Below are positions 4,511 through 8,873 of a stretch of DNA of 13,060 bases, in pieces. Position numbers and translations under genes: made by a program. Positions within the stretch are counted from its first letter, which is position 1; each line of letters opens with the position of its first letter. Source of the DNA: JBBIVP01 sp037439705 [NCBI: bacterium] (lineage in GTDB: Bacteria; JBBIVP01); contig JBBIVP010000039.1 in assembly GCA_037439705.1 (NCBI GenBank), positions 1 to 13,060 of the forward strand. The letters run 5' to 3'. The notes beneath the pieces were generated by a model. It saw nothing but the letters and a program-made list of their open reading frames with translations, made no database searches and was not told the DNA's origin.

Positions 4511-5167
4511 ATGGAACTCTTAAGGAGCAAAGAAGATGTAATCAAAAAGTTTGGAAAGTTTTATAAGAAGGGAACAATCCTTTTCAAGGAAGGGGAAGAG
4601 GGGGATAAAATGTTCATAATTCATCAGGGGAAGGTTAAGGTTTTCAGAATAATAAAAGGGGTTGAGAGGGTTCTTGCAGTTCTTGAGAAAGGAGATTTCT
4701 TCGGAGAAATGGCAATTTTCACAGAGCATCCCCGTTCTGCTTCAATAGAAGTAATAGAGGACAGTATACTCATTGAACTGACAGAGGATCAGCTTTTAGA
4801 GTTCATAAAGGAAGAACCTGCCATAGCCTTAAAGATGCTCACAATTATGGCAAAAAGGTTAGAGAACTCCAATAAATTGGTGGAGAATCTACTTCTAAAG
4901 GATGAAAGGACACAGAGCCTTAGTGCCATCATTCAGATAGCAGAGGAGATGGAGAAAATGGGAAAGAGTGGAGATTGGTTCAGATTTGAGCCAAATTCAT
5001 TTATAGCGAGAGCGGGTGTTTCCCTTGAAACTGCTAAAATGGTCCTTGCCACAATCAAAAGAATGGGTTTAATTGAAGTAAAGGGTAAGAATATTAAGAT
5101 AGTGAATCCCGCAAAGTTAAAGGAGTTCATAAACTTCCTTTTGTGGAGCAGGACTATAACACAGTGA
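4511..5167 (+). CDS. Crp/Fnr family transcriptional regulator
   Basis: This 218-aa protein is a cytoplasmic DNA-binding regulator of the Crp/Fnr superfamily. An N-terminal cyclic-nucleotide-binding jelly roll covers about residues 10-115 (the GTILFKEGEEGDKMFIIHQG strand pair, then GEMAIFTEHPRSAS at 65-78). The GE...RSA phosphate-binding cassette is intact, so a cyclic nucleotide ligand is plausible. There is no N-terminal cysteine cluster as in oxygen-sensing Fnr. A dimerisation helix (about 100-150) leads to a C-terminal winged helix-turn-helix at about 163-195 (FIARAGVSLETAKMVLATIKRMGLIEV). It is the first gene of the que operon, and its TGA is shared with the queD GTG. It may regulate its own divergent promoter region, which carries a dyad. 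The ATG at 4511 is supported by the promoter, and no better in-frame start with a ribosome binding site exists downstream. The ligand and target genes are unknown. Confidence 0.9.
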   Translation: MELLRSKEDVIKKFGKFYKKGTILFKEGEEGDKMFIIHQGKVKVFRIIKGVERVLAVLEKGDFFGEMAIFTEHPRSASIEVIEDSILIELTEDQLLEFIKEEPAIALKMLTIMAKRLENSNKLVENLLLKDERTQSLSAIIQIAEEMEKMGKSGDWFRFEPNSFIARAGVSLETAKMVLATIKRMGLIEVKGKNIKIVNPAKLKEFINFLLWSRTITQ

Positions 5168-5535
5168 AAAAATACAGAATAACTGTGCAGGGCAGATTTT
5201 CATCTGCACATTTTCTCAGGGGTTATAAGGGAAAGTGTGAAGCCCTCCACGGACACAATTACCTCGTTCAGTGCACAATTGAAGGAAAAGGGGTTGACGA
5301 TCTTGGGATGGTGATGGATTTTAACAGGTTGAAAGGGTTACTATCAAAGGTTCTAAATGAGCTTGACCACAAGCTACTCAATGACCTTCCTCAGTTTAAA
5401 GCAAAAAACCCGACTGCTGAAAACATAGCAGAGTTTATCTATGAAGAGGTAAAAAAAGAACTTCCTCCTGATTCATTCCTCCACATAAAGGTATGGGAGA
5501 CAGATGAGAGTTGTGCTGAATACTGTGACCTGTGA
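5164..5535 (+). CDS. queD: 6-carboxy-5,6,7,8-tetrahydropterin synthase QueD
   Basis: QueD converts 7,8-dihydroneopterin triphosphate to 6-carboxytetrahydropterin, an early step towards preQ0 and queuosine. The PTPS-fold motifs are complete: zinc ligands His16 (SSAHF), His29 and His31 (LHGHNY), catalytic Cys25 just before them, the DHKLLND motif at 68-74 and the conserved Glu112 (VWET). The predicted length is 123 aa, normal for the family. The start chosen is GTG at 5164, which forms a GTGA overlap with the crp-like stop, has AGGA at 5150-5153 and gives the usual family N-terminus (KKYRITV). A longer frame from GTG at 5143 adds seven residues but has a less suitable ribosome binding site. The next gene, queC, starts within its stop codon. 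Confidence 0.94.
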   Translation: MKKYRITVQGRFSSAHFLRGYKGKCEALHGHNYLVQCTIEGKGVDDLGMVMDFNRLKGLLSKVLNELDHKLLNDLPQFKAKNPTAENIAEFIYEEVKKELPPDSFLHIKVWETDESCAEYCDL

Positions 5536-6194
5536 GCGGAATAGCCCTCATATCAGGAGGTCTTGATTCAACATTAGCACTTCATCTTGCAGTTAAGAAA
5601 AAAAGGTGCTCACTGGCTTTAACCTTTGACTATGGACAGGTTTCAGGAAAGAAAGAACTTCTGGCATCCCGAAAGATATGCAAAAAGTATGGAATTAAAC
5701 ATATCGTCATTAAGCTTCCCTTTCTTAAAAAAATAAGCAAGAAAAGTGGACTCATATCAGGAAAAATTCCTTCAATTGAAAATCCATCGGAGGAAACTGC
5801 AAGGGCTGTCTGGATTCCAAATAGAAACGGATTGTTTGCAAATGTAGCTGCTTGCTTTTGTGATGCAATGAACCTGAGATGGGTTATCATGGGTTTAAAC
5901 AGGGAAGAGGGAATGAGTTTTCCTGACAACTCAGAAAGTTTTGTCCAAAAAATGAACGAGCTCTGGACATTTTCAACCCTCGCCAGACCAAAGCTGTGGG
6001 CTCCTCTTATTGATAAAACAAAGGAGGAGATTCTAAAAACTGCCATTGAAGAAAAAATTGACCTTTCCTATATATGGGTTTGTTATAAAGTCGGGAAGAA
6101 GCATTGTGGAATATGTGAATCCTGTTTCAGGTTAAAAAGGGCTATGAAAAATCTCGGTGTTTTTGATAAATTTACGGAAATGTTTGAAAGATGA
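5532..6194 (+). CDS. queC: 7-cyano-7-deazaguanine (preQ0) synthase QueC
   Basis: QueC is the ATP-dependent enzyme that converts 7-carboxy-7-deazaguanine and ammonia to preQ0. The PP-loop ATP-pyrophosphatase motif SGGLDST is at residues 8-14, followed by TFDYGQ at 31-36 as expected for the family. WIPNRNG at 94-100 is the conserved substrate region. Four cysteines at 184, 192, 195 and 198 (in CYKVGKKHCGICESC) form the structural zinc site. The length of 220 aa is typical. It starts with GTG overlapping the queD stop by four bases and ends overlapping the DUF366 gene by four bases, so translation is coupled throughout. Confidence 0.95.
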   Translation: MSGIALISGGLDSTLALHLAVKKKRCSLALTFDYGQVSGKKELLASRKICKKYGIKHIVIKLPFLKKISKKSGLISGKIPSIENPSEETARAVWIPNRNGLFANVAACFCDAMNLRWVIMGLNREEGMSFPDNSESFVQKMNELWTFSTLARPKLWAPLIDKTKEEILKTAIEEKIDLSYIWVCYKVGKKHCGICESCFRLKRAMKNLGVFDKFTEMFER

Positions 6195-6745
6195 AGACGG
6201 TTTTTACAAAAGAAGATATATTCTATGATGGAAGCCAGCTTTCTGAAAGATGGATATACAGAAAATTTGGGGTTTTGGGGGATGCGTGCGTGGCTTTTGT
6301 GGGAGGCTGTGATGTGAAACCTGAATACATGGCAGACCTTGAGGACCTTAAAGGAGAAAAACTTATAAGGGCTCAAAAGATGCTCCATTTTATTTCCGAG
6401 ATATTTTCCTTTCCCCAAAAATCCTGCGTTCTCCTTCAGAAACTTTTTGTCGTTAACTTAAAGGAATTGCTTGAAATGAAGACGAAAAAACACTTTTTAA
6501 GAAGGGGAAACGACCTGTACCTTGATGAAAAGAAACTAAACATCTCGGTGGCAATTCCATCCATTTCTTCATCGCTCATCCACATAGGGTTAAACATAGA
6601 TGGAACCGGAGCACCTGTTCCTGTGATTACACTTCCAGAACTGGGAATAGAACCCGGGGTTTTCGCAGTTGAAGCCCTTGACCGAATAAGTTCAGAATTT
6701 GAAAACTCCCTTAATGCGCTTTTCAAAACCCGCTCCTCAAGATGA
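6191..6745 (+). CDS. DUF366 family protein embedded in preQ0 operon
   Basis: This 184-aa protein has no established function. The features I associate with DUF366, a family I recall mainly from archaea and some thermophilic bacteria, are visible: YDGSQL at residues 12-17 with a nearby conserved Trp, GGCDV, a DLEDL segment, MLHFISEIF, and a C-terminal block around SSSLIHIGLNIDGTGAPVPV followed by ELGI. There are no membrane segments or signal peptide, so it should be cytoplasmic. From memory, the family has been related to the biotin/lipoate ligase fold; I cannot test that here. Its position between queC and queE, with ATGA overlaps at both ends, strongly suggests a role linked to 7-deazaguanine metabolism. 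The family assignment is fairly secure; the role is inference from context. Confidence 0.8.
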   Translation: MKTVFTKEDIFYDGSQLSERWIYRKFGVLGDACVAFVGGCDVKPEYMADLEDLKGEKLIRAQKMLHFISEIFSFPQKSCVLLQKLFVVNLKELLEMKTKKHFLRRGNDLYLDEKKLNISVAIPSISSSLIHIGLNIDGTGAPVPVITLPELGIEPGVFAVEALDRISSEFENSLNALFKTRSSR

Positions 6746-7458
6746 AAGGGTATATAAGCGAGGGATTCGTATCAATTCAGGGGGAGGGTGAATTTGCAGG
6801 AAAACCACAGTTCTTTTTGAGATTTGCTGGATGCTCAATGAGATGTTCCTATTGCGACACAAAATATGCATGGAGAAGAAAAGAAGATTTTCTCATTCAT
6901 TTTCCAGATGGGAAAAAAAGATTCAAAAATCCAGTTGACCCATTTGAGATGGCAAATTTTTTAAATTCTAAAAGAGAAAAGGGAGAGATTCCGAAAAGTA
7001 TCTCAATTACTGGCGGTGAACCCTTGGAACAGGTGGAATTTTTTGAAGACCTTATTAAGGGGTTAAAAAATTTTGAAATACTTCTTGAAACAAATGGAAT
7101 GCATACAGAGATAAAGGAAGAACTTGTAACACTCGTTAATTTTTTTTCCGTTGACATAAAACTTCCGTCTTTTGTGGGTAAAGAAATCGATTATTCAGTT
7201 CATGAGGCATTTTTGAAAAAACTGAAAACCATGGGAGCAAAGGGATACATAAAAATTGTTTTTACAAAAAAAACATCTTCAGAGGAGGTAAAAAGAGCGC
7301 TTGATTTATTTTCTTCTTCGGGAATTTACTGGAACATTTATCTTCAACCAACCTCTCCATCCCTCATCAAAAAGGGCTTGAAAATAATAAGGCAGGAACT
7401 TTATCCATTTCACTTGAGAATTCTTCCCCAAATTCATAAAATTTTAAACCTGAAATGA
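6742..7458 (+). CDS. queE: 7-carboxy-7-deazaguanine synthase QueE (radical SAM)
   Basis: QueE is a radical S-adenosylmethionine enzyme that contracts the ring of 6-carboxytetrahydropterin to 7-carboxy-7-deazaguanine, the step between QueD and QueC. The N-terminus SEGFVSIQGEGEFAGKPQFF is the classic QueE opening. The cluster motif CSMRCSYCD gives Cys31, Cys35 and Cys38 as ligands of the 4Fe-4S cluster. TGGEPL at 90-95 is the SAM-binding GGE motif, and QPTSPS at 202-207 is a conserved C-terminal substrate motif. At 238 aa it is of normal size. It carries a short insert after the cluster loop (about residues 42-62, rich in Lys/Arg) where QueE proteins vary. ATGA overlaps join it to DUF366 upstream and to the aldehyde dehydrogenase downstream. 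Confidence 0.95.
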   Translation: MKGYISEGFVSIQGEGEFAGKPQFFLRFAGCSMRCSYCDTKYAWRRKEDFLIHFPDGKKRFKNPVDPFEMANFLNSKREKGEIPKSISITGGEPLEQVEFFEDLIKGLKNFEILLETNGMHTEIKEELVTLVNFFSVDIKLPSFVGKEIDYSVHEAFLKKLKTMGAKGYIKIVFTKKTSSEEVKRALDLFSSSGIYWNIYLQPTSPSLIKKGLKIIRQELYPFHLRILPQIHKILNLK

Positions 7459-8873
7459 AGAGATACCCAATAATAGTTAACGGAGAAGAAAGGTACAAAT
7501 CTGATTTCAGAGAAATAAGGGACCCTTATACCGGGGAAATAATCGCTGAATTTTCACTTGCAGATGAAAAAGATATTGAAGAAGCATCTGAGGGAGTTCT
7601 GAGAGCGTTTAAAAAATTTAAACTGAGTTCATCGGAAAGAAGAAAAATTCTTTTTCAGATTTCAAAGAAAATAAGGGAAAGGGCCGAGGAACTTGTAAAA
7701 TGGGTTGTGAGGGAAGCGGGAAAACCTCTTACACTTGCAAAAATGGAGGTTGAGAGGTGTGCTCAGACCTTTGAGATGGCAGGCGGAGAGATTCTTAACT
7801 ACGGTGGAGAGGTCATTCCAATTGATGTGACAGACTGGACCGGAAATTATTTCGGGTTTTTCAGATATTTTCCAAGAGGTCCTGTTCTTGCAATTACTCC
7901 ATTTAATTTTCCATTAAACCTGCTCGCTCATAAGATAGCCCCTGCAATAGCCATTGGTGCTCCGTTTGTGGTAAAACCCGCACCTCAAACCCCTGTTTGC
8001 GCCTACAATCTTTTGAAAATAGCATATGAAAGCGGACTCCCATCTGAATTTGCAAGTCTCATATACTGCACAAATGAATTGGCAGAAAAAATGGTAAAAA
8101 TGGAAGAATTTGAAATCCTTTCGTTTACTGGAAGTGCCAAAGTTGGATGGTACCTTGAAGGGATTGCCGGTAGGAAGAAGGTTCTTCTTGAACTCGGCGG
8201 AAACGCTCCTGCAATAGTCCATAAGGATGCGGATATAAAATGGTCTGCAAGAAGGATTGTTCTTGGTGGGTTCATGTATGCTGGACAGATATGCATATCC
8301 GTTCAGAGGGTTTATGTTCATAATGAAATCTACGAAAAGTTTAAAGAAGAATTGATTTCCGCCACAGGTGATTTAAAGGTCGGAAACCCTTTTGAAAAAG
8401 ATGTGGTGGTTGGTCCGGTTATAAACGCCGAATCAGCGGAAAGAATTGAAAACTGGATTGAGAAGGCTGTTAAAAATGGAGCAAGGTTACTTACCGCGAA
8501 GAGAAGGGAAGGAAATCTCATTTATCCTGTTATTCTTGAGAATCCTCCTGAAGGCGAAGAGGTGGTTCGTGAGGAGATATTTGGTCCCGTTATATGCATT
8601 TTTCCTTATAATGACATTCGTTCAGCAATAGAAAAAGCAAATGATACGAAGTACGGGCTTCAGGCTGGAATTTTTACAAAGGATATAAACCTCGCCCTTT
8701 CAGCCTATGAAGAACTTGATTACGGAGGAGTAATAATAAATGACTACCCAACATTCAGAACCGACAACTTTCCATACGGAGGAATAAAGGCTTCTGGAAT
8801 GGGAAGGGAGGGGATAAAATATGCAATGCTGGAAATGTCAGAGATAAAAATGTGCGTGATAAGGAAAGACTGA
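7455..8873 (+). CDS. NAD(P)-dependent aldehyde dehydrogenase family protein
   Basis: This 472-aa cytoplasmic enzyme of the aldehyde dehydrogenase superfamily oxidises an aldehyde to a carboxylate using NAD or NADP. All catalytic elements are present: Asn151 (PFNFP), Lys174 (VVKPA), the cofactor motif FTGS at 224-227, general base Glu246 in LELGG, nucleophile Cys280 (GQIC) and Glu374 in EEIFGP. Sequence flavour is closest to the lactaldehyde / non-phosphorylating glyceraldehyde-3-phosphate dehydrogenase-like branch, but the substrate cannot be read from sequence. It is the last clear gene of the que operon and overlaps queE by ATGA. There is no known step for an aldehyde dehydrogenase in preQ0 synthesis, so its place here is unexplained. 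A short frame overlapping its 3' end may follow. Confidence 0.93.
   Translation: MKRYPIIVNGEERYKSDFREIRDPYTGEIIAEFSLADEKDIEEASEGVLRAFKKFKLSSSERRKILFQISKKIRERAEELVKWVVREAGKPLTLAKMEVERCAQTFEMAGGEILNYGGEVIPIDVTDWTGNYFGFFRYFPRGPVLAITPFNFPLNLLAHKIAPAIAIGAPFVVKPAPQTPVCAYNLLKIAYESGLPSEFASLIYCTNELAEKMVKMEEFEILSFTGSAKVGWYLEGIAGRKKVLLELGGNAPAIVHKDADIKWSARRIVLGGFMYAGQICISVQRVYVHNEIYEKFKEELISATGDLKVGNPFEKDVVVGPVINAESAERIENWIEKAVKNGARLLTAKRREGNLIYPVILENPPEGEEVVREEIFGPVICIFPYNDIRSAIEKANDTKYGLQAGIFTKDINLALSAYEELDYGGVIINDYPTFRTDNFPYGGIKASGMGREGIKYAMLEMSEIKMCVIRKD

What the first reader, a model, noticed from the sequence alone, without database searches (positions are those of the whole stretch)
6191..6745. 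DUF366 protein locked inside a preQ0 biosynthesis operon
A protein of unknown function sits between queC and queE with four-base overlaps on both sides. QueD, QueE and QueC account for the known steps to preQ0, so the extra gene points to an undescribed step, such as preQ0 use, salvage, attachment or an alternative to an early or late enzyme. The conserved YDGSQL and SSLIHIGLN segments look like a ligand-binding site.
Basis: partly seen in the sequence, partly recalled or inferred. Interest (0 to 1): 0.6.

Follow-up and report, generated by a model that had tools for sequence, protein, structure and literature searches.

The report
Ligase-like partner of variant preQ0 synthase
A small protein of unknown function in this operon has the biotin/lipoate ligase fold and nearly always accompanies a distinct variant of the enzyme that makes preQ0, the precursor of two tRNA modifications, which suggests an undescribed version of that step.

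Summary
In detail: DUF366 (6191-6745, PF04017) sits in a coupled operon queD-queC-DUF366-queE-aldehyde dehydrogenase with four-base overlaps.

The link to 7-deazaguanine synthesis is real and widespread: queD-queC-DUF366-queE in Bacillota-type genomes, queC-DUF366 in small Cyanobacteriota genomes, and a queC cluster in one Thermococci genome.

DUF366 goes with a separate QueC clade (support 100/100) whose YPDC substrate motif is FPDN: 117 of 117 adjacent QueC reads (55 of 55 taking one locus per genome) and 15 of 15 reads from DUF366-positive Thermococci-like genomes; 33 of 34 others have the usual motif.

DUF366 has the biotin/lipoate ligase fold (Z about 14) and keeps its Asp/Lys pair.

Best reading: DUF366 acts with this QueC at the CDG-to-preQ0 step by ligase-type chemistry. 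The linkage is well supported; the mechanism is inferred.

Against: four genomes keep DUF366 with an ordinary QueC, two without QueC. DUF366-positive Bacillota-type genomes mostly lack QueF (34 of 38), so QueF replacement is a rival, but 10 of 12 tested Cyanobacteriota have both, and archaea need no preQ1.

No paper on this link turned up in the searches made.

The parts
5143..5535 (+). queD, 6-carboxytetrahydropterin synthase
   Evidence: PF01242 E 4.8e-40; TIGR03367 106.8 bits, cut-off 89.25
5532..6194 (+). queC, variant subtype (called QueC2 here)
   Evidence: PF06508 E 7.2e-47; TIGR00364 just over cut-off; inside the DUF366-linked clade, support 100/100
5907..5930 (+). variant substrate motif of QueC2: E126 and F130-P-D-N133 in place of D...Y-P-D-C
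   Evidence: 62 of 62 against 24 of 24 at three columns; 117 of 117 adjacent QueC reads; canonical motif and mutants from PMC13329287 section 6
6191..6745 (+). DUF366 protein, biotin/lipoate ligase catalytic-domain fold
   Evidence: PF04017; model mean pLDDT 94.9; 2DDZ Z 29.6, biotin ligases Z about 12-14
6500..6535 (+). putative catalytic segment R104-R-G-N-D108-L-Y...K115 of DUF366
   Evidence: R104, G106, D108, K115 invariant in 35 sequences; aligned with the ND...K segment of A. aeolicus biotin ligase, E 0.0015
6742..7458 (+). queE-like radical SAM protein
   Evidence: PF04055 E 3.4e-10; best NCBIfam matches are QueE models, below cut-off
7455..8873 (+). aldehyde dehydrogenase, coupled to queE by ATGA; membership of the system unproven
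   Evidence: PF00171 E 9.2e-139; the tblastn shows no match to it in the 117 loci searched (90 of them with at most 1.5 kb of flank)

Best explanation
DUF366 is a stand-alone enzyme of the biotin/lipoate-ligase (class II synthetase-like) fold that belongs to a variant preQ0 pathway. It works at the CDG-to-preQ0 node together with a distinct QueC (QueC2). Inferred: QueC2, with its substrate motif changed from D..YPDC to E..FPDN, carries out only part of the two ATP-dependent steps CDG to ADG to preQ0 well, and DUF366 uses ligase-type activation of the carbonyl (invariant Asp108 and Lys115) to carry out or finish the other part. Shown: operon linkage, co-occurrence, the separate QueC clade, the motif change, the fold and the conserved residues. 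Not shown: any activity, substrate, ATP use or complex.
For: Same-strand adjacency to queC in 25 of the 30 best-scoring Bacillota-type loci (24 with a gap under 100 bases) and 30 of the 30 best-scoring Cyanobacteriota loci (of 38 and 89 genomes with DUF366), and to queE in 29 of the 30 Bacillota-type loci. queC, DUF2139, phosphatase and DUF366 in one same-strand run in one Thermococci genome. QueC tree of 88 rows: all 59 DUF366-adjacent bacterial QueC, the window QueC and both remaining Thermococci-like QueC form one clade, 100/100, apart from every sampled QueC of DUF366-negative genomes. Motif: 117 of 117 adjacent reads (several genomes read twice; 55 of 55 with one locus per genome) and 15 of 15 Thermococci-like QueC from DUF366-positive genomes are FPDN-type; of the other 34, 33 are YPDC-type and one is unassigned. 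In Thermococci queC is not within 1.5 kb of DUF366 in 30 of 30 loci, yet both are kept. Genomes with a strong QueC and no DUF366: 51 in the Bacillota-type sample and 96 in the Cyanobacteriota sample, so ordinary QueC needs no DUF366. 210 phage records match QueC, one record matches DUF366, and that one looks bacterial. Fold and Asp/Lys pair.
Against: Four genomes (G009, G055, G056, G094) keep DUF366 with an ordinary QueC elsewhere. In the G055/G094 pair DUF366 differs at 0.15 of nonsynonymous but 0.83 of synonymous sites, so it probably stayed under selection long after QueC2 was lost. Two genomes (G233, G292) keep DUF366 without any strong QueC. Six large-genome Cyanobacteriota loci (L004, L153-L156, L194) have DUF366 with no queC near, and their QueC type was not read. 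Ten Thermococci-like genomes have a QueC in the score range of the variant class (type not read) but no DUF366; 13 of 13 DUF366-negative genomes of that group also lack its phosphatase neighbour, so assembly gaps are possible but joint loss is not excluded. No phosphate-binding loop like that of biotin ligases was seen in the alignment (motif recalled). Co-transfer of the pair could explain part of the tree pattern.
Confidence: 0.4

Rival explanations
1. DUF366 replaces QueF: it, alone or with a partner, turns preQ0 into preQ1 in bacteria that lack QueF.
For: In 299 Bacillota-type genomes QueF is over cut-off in 4 of 38 DUF366-positive genomes and in 35 of 51 DUF366-negative genomes with QueC (Fisher p 6.7e-8 on the 36 and 51 that have QueC, not corrected for kinship). 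TGT and QueA are present in 30 of 30 DUF366-positive Bacillota-type genomes tested, so preQ1 should be needed. QueF is also absent where QueC is ordinary (G009, G055, G056, G094) or missing (G233; G292). DUF366 kept in G233 after loss of queD, queC and queE beside it points downstream of preQ0.
Against: QueF is present in 10 of 12 DUF366-positive Cyanobacteriota tested. The three Thermococci-like genomes tested have DUF366 but neither QueF nor QueA and archaea use preQ0 directly. 16 Bacillota-type genomes have QueC but neither QueF nor DUF366. No invariant cysteine, and no NADPH site is known to me in this fold (recalled).
Confidence: 0.13
2. DUF366 acts on free 7-deazaguanine bases or nucleotides in salvage or repair, independent of which QueC is used, for example turning ADG back into preQ0.
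For: Kept without QueC in G233 and G292. In Thermococci it follows a HAD phosphatase (24 of the 34 Thermococci loci, some of the same genome; 9 of 10 DUF366-positive genomes have the phosphatase), and one genome has a phosphatase-DUF366 fusion (L078), as expected for nucleotide salvage.
Against: Does not explain why DUF366 is so tightly tied to the FPDN type of QueC or its place between queC and queE.
Confidence: 0.2
3. DUF366 is not an enzyme but a binding partner: a scaffold, stabiliser or effector-sensing protein for QueC2 or QueE.
For: It is short, lacks the C-terminal part of biotin ligases, and no biotin-ligase phosphate-loop motif was seen.
Against: Many invariant polar residues (Y12, D49, D52, E70, Q83, R104, D108, K115, S119, H131, N135, E169, K179) and an Asp/Lys pair that aligns with biotin ligases.
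Confidence: 0.15
4. DUF366 acts on tRNA, attaching or removing a group on the inserted 7-deazaguanine.
For: The fold family includes class II synthetase-like enzymes (general knowledge).
Against: Queuosine sits at position 34 and archaeosine at position 14 or 15 (PMC13329287). In the panel genomes tgt and queA lie apart from DUF366; the nearest case I found in the listed positions is queA of G547, about 20 kb away.
Confidence: 0.05

Closest known systems
PH1223 of Pyrococcus horikoshii, PDB 2DDZ (DUF366, function unknown; locus name recalled)
   Same: Same family; 40-41% identity, Z 29.6 over 183 residues
   Different: In related Thermococci the gene mostly lies beside a HAD phosphatase and not in a que operon
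Biotin protein ligase catalytic domain (BirA, A. aeolicus and P. horikoshii BPL)
   Same: Fold, Z about 12-14 over about 150-165 residues; Asp and Lys of the ND...K segment
   Different: No C-terminal domain, 8-19% identity, no recognisable phosphate loop, and the genomic context is preQ0 synthesis
Lipoate protein ligase / LipB
   Same: Fold, Z 13.7 for LipB 1w66
   Different: C40 is not invariant, so no candidate catalytic cysteine as in LipB (LipB mechanism recalled)
Canonical QueC (PF06508 cluster 1 of PMC13329287)
   Same: The operon partner keeps SGGxDS, VPxRN (IPNRN in the window) and the zinc cysteines
   Different: YPDC replaced by FPDN (P varies) and a nearby D by E in 62 of 62 rows; separate clade
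QueF (PF14489)
   Same: Complementary distribution in Bacillota-type genomes
   Different: No QueF match of DUF366; both present in 10 of 12 DUF366-positive Cyanobacteriota tested

Membership tests
DUF366 (PF04017) | Full-length profile match above the curated cut-off | tested here: met
   169.8 bits, cut-off 29.9, positions 1-183 of 184
Biotin/lipoate ligase fold superfamily | Catalytic-domain fold | tested here: met
   Foldseek E 1.7e-8 to 3efs; VIA Z 14.2 to 8fi3, 14.1 to 2ejg
Biotin/lipoate ligase fold superfamily | Catalytic lysine and preceding aspartate (role recalled) | tested here: met
   K115 and D108 invariant in 35 sequences and aligned with A. aeolicus BPL
Biotin protein ligase | Curated full-length family match | tested here: not met
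   NF006294 19.8 bits, cut-off 179; no BPL family among Pfam matches up to E 1
Biotin protein ligase | Glycine/arginine-rich phosphate-binding loop | tested here: inconclusive
   Not seen by eye in the alignment; motif recalled, structure not inspected residue by residue
QueF | PF14489 match | tested here: not met
   DUF366 is the only Pfam family listed up to E 1
Canonical QueC (operon partner) | PF06508 match and zinc cysteines | tested here: met
Canonical QueC (operon partner) | YPDC substrate motif | tested here: not met
   FPDN in the window
preQ0 pathway enzyme | Activity on a 7-deazaguanine | not testable with these tools
   No biochemical data

The most novel reading that the evidence does not exclude
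QueC2 and DUF366 are a two-protein preQ0 synthase shared by bacteria and archaea, in which a biotin-ligase-fold enzyme activates the carbonyl of CDG or ADG, so that nitrile formation is split between two enzymes instead of being done twice by QueC.
Probability: 0.25. Interest if true: 0.8.

Novelty: new variant of a known kind. Interest (0 to 1): 0.62.

Why it matters
It gives a structure of unknown function released in 2007 (2DDZ) a pathway and a partner. It splits QueC into two types with a simple motif that goes with the presence of DUF366. It also shows that many Bacillota-type genomes carry preQ0 genes, TGT and QueA but no detectable QueF, so an enzyme of queuosine synthesis may still be missing there. 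All three points can be tested by simple complementation.

Tried and rejected
Early-enzyme replacement: folE, queD, queC and queE are all present in the typical Bacillota-type operon, so no early step lacks a gene there. Defence role: DUF366 has no PADLOC match and its QueC partner matches only the generic QueC model. Mobile or phage origin: no DUF366 match in 72,556 plasmid records, one phage record that looks bacterial, and none confirmed in viral contigs by pattern. preQ1 riboswitch as a product hint: none at gathering score in 9 sources. LipB-like cysteine mechanism: C40 is not invariant. Not done: QueC type in the six large-genome Cyanobacteriota, in G550, and in the ten Thermococci-like genomes without DUF366; motif of phage QueC; inspection of the modelled pocket; T. 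kodakarensis by name.

Literature. (word beginning DUF366): 22 papers, 20 listed; by title none concerns queuosine, and none was opened. (COG2029, PF04017, PH1223): one Myxococcus paper, not opened; one paper, not opened. (QueF missing): 10 papers; passages of PMC6593275, PMC5372724 and PMC11130926 seen, none naming another enzyme for the QueF step; 29 papers, 20 listed; none; 11 papers. (2DDZ, IPR007162, DUF366 family): 9 papers, 8 listed, none relevant by title. PMC13329287 has no occurrence of DUF, FPDN or PF04017 in its main text; its supplements were not read.

Rows dropped: G144 (partial PF04017 hit under cut-off) was not counted as DUF366-positive. For QueC counts in Bacillota-type genomes only best hits over 100 bits were taken. 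QueC reads aligned over fewer than 170 residues were left out of the tree (166 to 164 rows), which was then dereplicated at 80% identity to 88; the QueC of G327 fell to that step. L215 is a long branch. In the motif count one row (L215) was unassigned; in the column comparison the two second-copy QueC (L215, L216) were left out. Among the 33 YPDC-type rows, three are the ordinary QueC of DUF366-positive genomes (L204-L206) and one is a second copy (L216). L147, L151, L158 and L161 had no DUF366 ORF by the gene caller and are not in its neighbour counts.

Full report
Observation. The ORF 6191-6745 is DUF366 (PF04017, E 5.6e-50, whole profile). It lies in a run of five genes joined by 4-base stop/start overlaps: queD 5143-5535, queC 5532-6194, DUF366 6191-6745, queE-like 6742-7458 and an aldehyde dehydrogenase 7455-8873. 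No whole genome is held for the window, so folE, queF, tgt and queA could not be looked for in it.

Spread. With PF04017 searched in whole genomes, DUF366 is over cut-off in 38 of 299 genomes of the phylum of Pelotomaculum (called Bacillota-type here), 81 of 115 of the phylum of Thermococcus and 89 of 194 of the phylum of Vampirovibrio (called Cyanobacteriota here). The first and third samples were drawn from larger groups. Of the 14 control genomes, Methanocaldococcus jannaschii and Methanosarcina acetivorans have it.

Neighbourhood. Of the 30 best-scoring Bacillota-type loci, queC precedes DUF366 on the same strand in 25 (24 with a gap under 100 bases) and queE follows in 29; of the 30 best-scoring Cyanobacteriota loci queC precedes it in 30. 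A GTP cyclohydrolase I gene follows in many Bacillota-type loci (a cluster in 32 loci of the 104 with a called DUF366 ORF, some of the same genome; named from a member). In six large-genome Cyanobacteriota loci (L004, L153-L156, L194) no queC is near. In Thermococci DUF366 follows a HAD phosphatase in 24 of 34 loci, and queC was not found within 1.5 kb in 30 of 30 loci (L058-L087). One genome (G327) has queC, DUF2139, the phosphatase and DUF366 as one same-strand run with touching or overlapping ORFs, depending on the start codons chosen, and one genome has a phosphatase-DUF366 fusion (L078).

A QueC subtype. A tree of 88 dereplicated QueC puts all 59 DUF366-adjacent bacterial QueC, the window QueC and both remaining Thermococci-like QueC into one clade with support 100/100. 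The sampled QueC of DUF366-negative archaea of the same phylum and of DUF366-negative bacteria lie outside it. Three columns separate the groups completely (62 of 62 against 24 of 24): a D to E, and the Y and C of YPDC to F and N. Over all reads, 117 of 117 adjacent QueC (55 of 55 with one locus per genome) and 15 of 15 Thermococci-like QueC from DUF366-positive genomes have the variant motif; of the 34 others 33 have the usual one and one is unassigned. In E. coli QueC, Y131A of that motif is dead and Y131F partly active (PMC13329287, section 6); C134 does not appear in its text.

Exceptions. DUF366 stays with an ordinary QueC elsewhere in the genome in G009, G055, G056 and G094 (the QueC of G056 was judged by score alone). 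DUF366 of G009 and G056 is identical in DNA over the aligned region; that of G055 and G094 is 76% identical with saturated synonymous change, and their QueC are sisters in the tree, so DUF366 has probably been selected without QueC2 for long. G233 has lost queD, queC and queE next to DUF366, keeps DUF366 beside folE, has TGT and QueA and no QueF. G292 has DUF366 without que neighbours, and neither QueC nor QueF is among the listed matches; its TGT and QueA were not tested and its assembly may be incomplete. DUF366 of G009, G055, G233 and G292 is among the 35 sequences over which 23 columns are invariant. Ten Thermococci-like genomes have a QueC in the score range of the variant class and no DUF366; the phosphatase neighbour is absent in 13 of 13 DUF366-negative genomes of that group and present in 9 of 10 DUF366-positive ones, which fits either gaps in assembly or joint loss.

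Fold. The AlphaFold model (35-sequence alignment) has mean pLDDT 94.9. Besides 2DDZ, the best matches are biotin ligases and LipB at Z about 12-14 over about 150-165 residues. A profile of DUF366 finds A. aeolicus biotin ligase by sequence at E 0.0015, aligning D108 and K115 with its ND...K segment. The domain is therefore a lone ligase-type catalytic domain without the C-terminal part. What it binds is unknown.

Which step lacks a gene. In a panel of 80 genomes TGT is in 80 and QueA in 77, that is all but the three archaea. QueF is over cut-off in 2 of 30 DUF366-positive Bacillota-type genomes, 14 of 20 DUF366-negative ones with ordinary QueC, 6 of 6 DUF366-negative ones with another low-scoring QueC, 10 of 12 DUF366-positive Cyanobacteriota, 5 of 6 and 3 of 3 DUF366-negative Cyanobacteriota with high- and low-scoring QueC, and 0 of 3 archaea. 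Over all 299 Bacillota-type genomes it is 4 of 38 DUF366-positive against 35 of 51 DUF366-negative with QueC. The step without a known gene in these Bacillota-type genomes is thus preQ0 to preQ1. But 16 genomes with QueC lack both QueF and DUF366, Cyanobacteriota mostly have both, and archaea need no preQ1. So the lack of QueF may mark lineages rather than the role of DUF366.

Verdict. Two correlations pull in different directions. The tie to the QueC2 motif is nearly perfect in the loci read over three phyla and two domains of life, holds where the genes are not neighbours, and puts DUF366 at the CDG-to-preQ0 node. The tie to absence of QueF holds in one phylum. Thermococcus kodakarensis makes archaeosine in a queE- and tgtA-dependent way (PMC6393311, passages) through preQ0 in tRNA (PMC11298593, abstract start and passages). 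Loci titled Thermococcus carry DUF366 and QueC2 is seen in genomes of that phylum, so I infer that this pathway variant delivers preQ0; T. kodakarensis was not examined by name. I therefore favour a QueC2 partner using ligase-type carbonyl activation at 0.4, and keep salvage or repair (0.2), a non-enzymatic partner (0.15) and QueF replacement (0.13) open. The four genomes with ordinary QueC and the two without QueC are the strongest evidence that DUF366 has some value of its own.

Novelty. No paper on DUF366 or 2DDZ in this context was found in the searches. The 2026 survey of the QueC family (PMC13329287; abstract and outline, section 6 and passages seen) does not mention DUF366 or the FPDN motif in its main text.

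Noticed in passing
window 7455-8873: An aldehyde dehydrogenase is coupled to queE by an ATGA overlap; one search showed no match to it in the 117 loci searched.
   Followed up: partly
16 Bacillota-type genomes (G016, G044, G063, G080, G091, G102, G122, G126, G136, G158, G166, G191, G216, G241, G265, G289): QueC present but neither QueF nor DUF366; six of them (G016, G044, G063, G102, G122, G126) were tested and have TGT and QueA, so a further preQ1 route may exist.
   Followed up: partly
L078 1489-2535 (-), genome G347: A fusion of the HAD phosphatase and DUF366 in one open frame in one Thermococci-like genome.
   Followed up: partly
L216 (genome G001): A second QueC beside a PF02592 transporter and a 588-aa protein with DUF6884 and a weak TGT match, with two further ORFs that look by eye like a helicase and a nuclease: possibly a 7-deazaguanine DNA modification cluster.
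   Followed up: partly
L256 / MW495066.1 104411-128971: The record 'Microcystis phage MaAM05' carries genes annotated glyS, mtgA, secDF, secF, fabI and fliM around DUF366 and looks like bacterial chromosome rather than phage.
   Followed up: partly
L215 8078-8695 (-), genome G033: A divergent QueC-like protein next to a kinase that looks PfkB-like by eye, resembling cluster 4 of PMC13329287.
   Followed up: no
window 4511-5167: A CRP/FNR-type regulator overlaps the called start of queD on the same strand and may control the operon.
   Followed up: no
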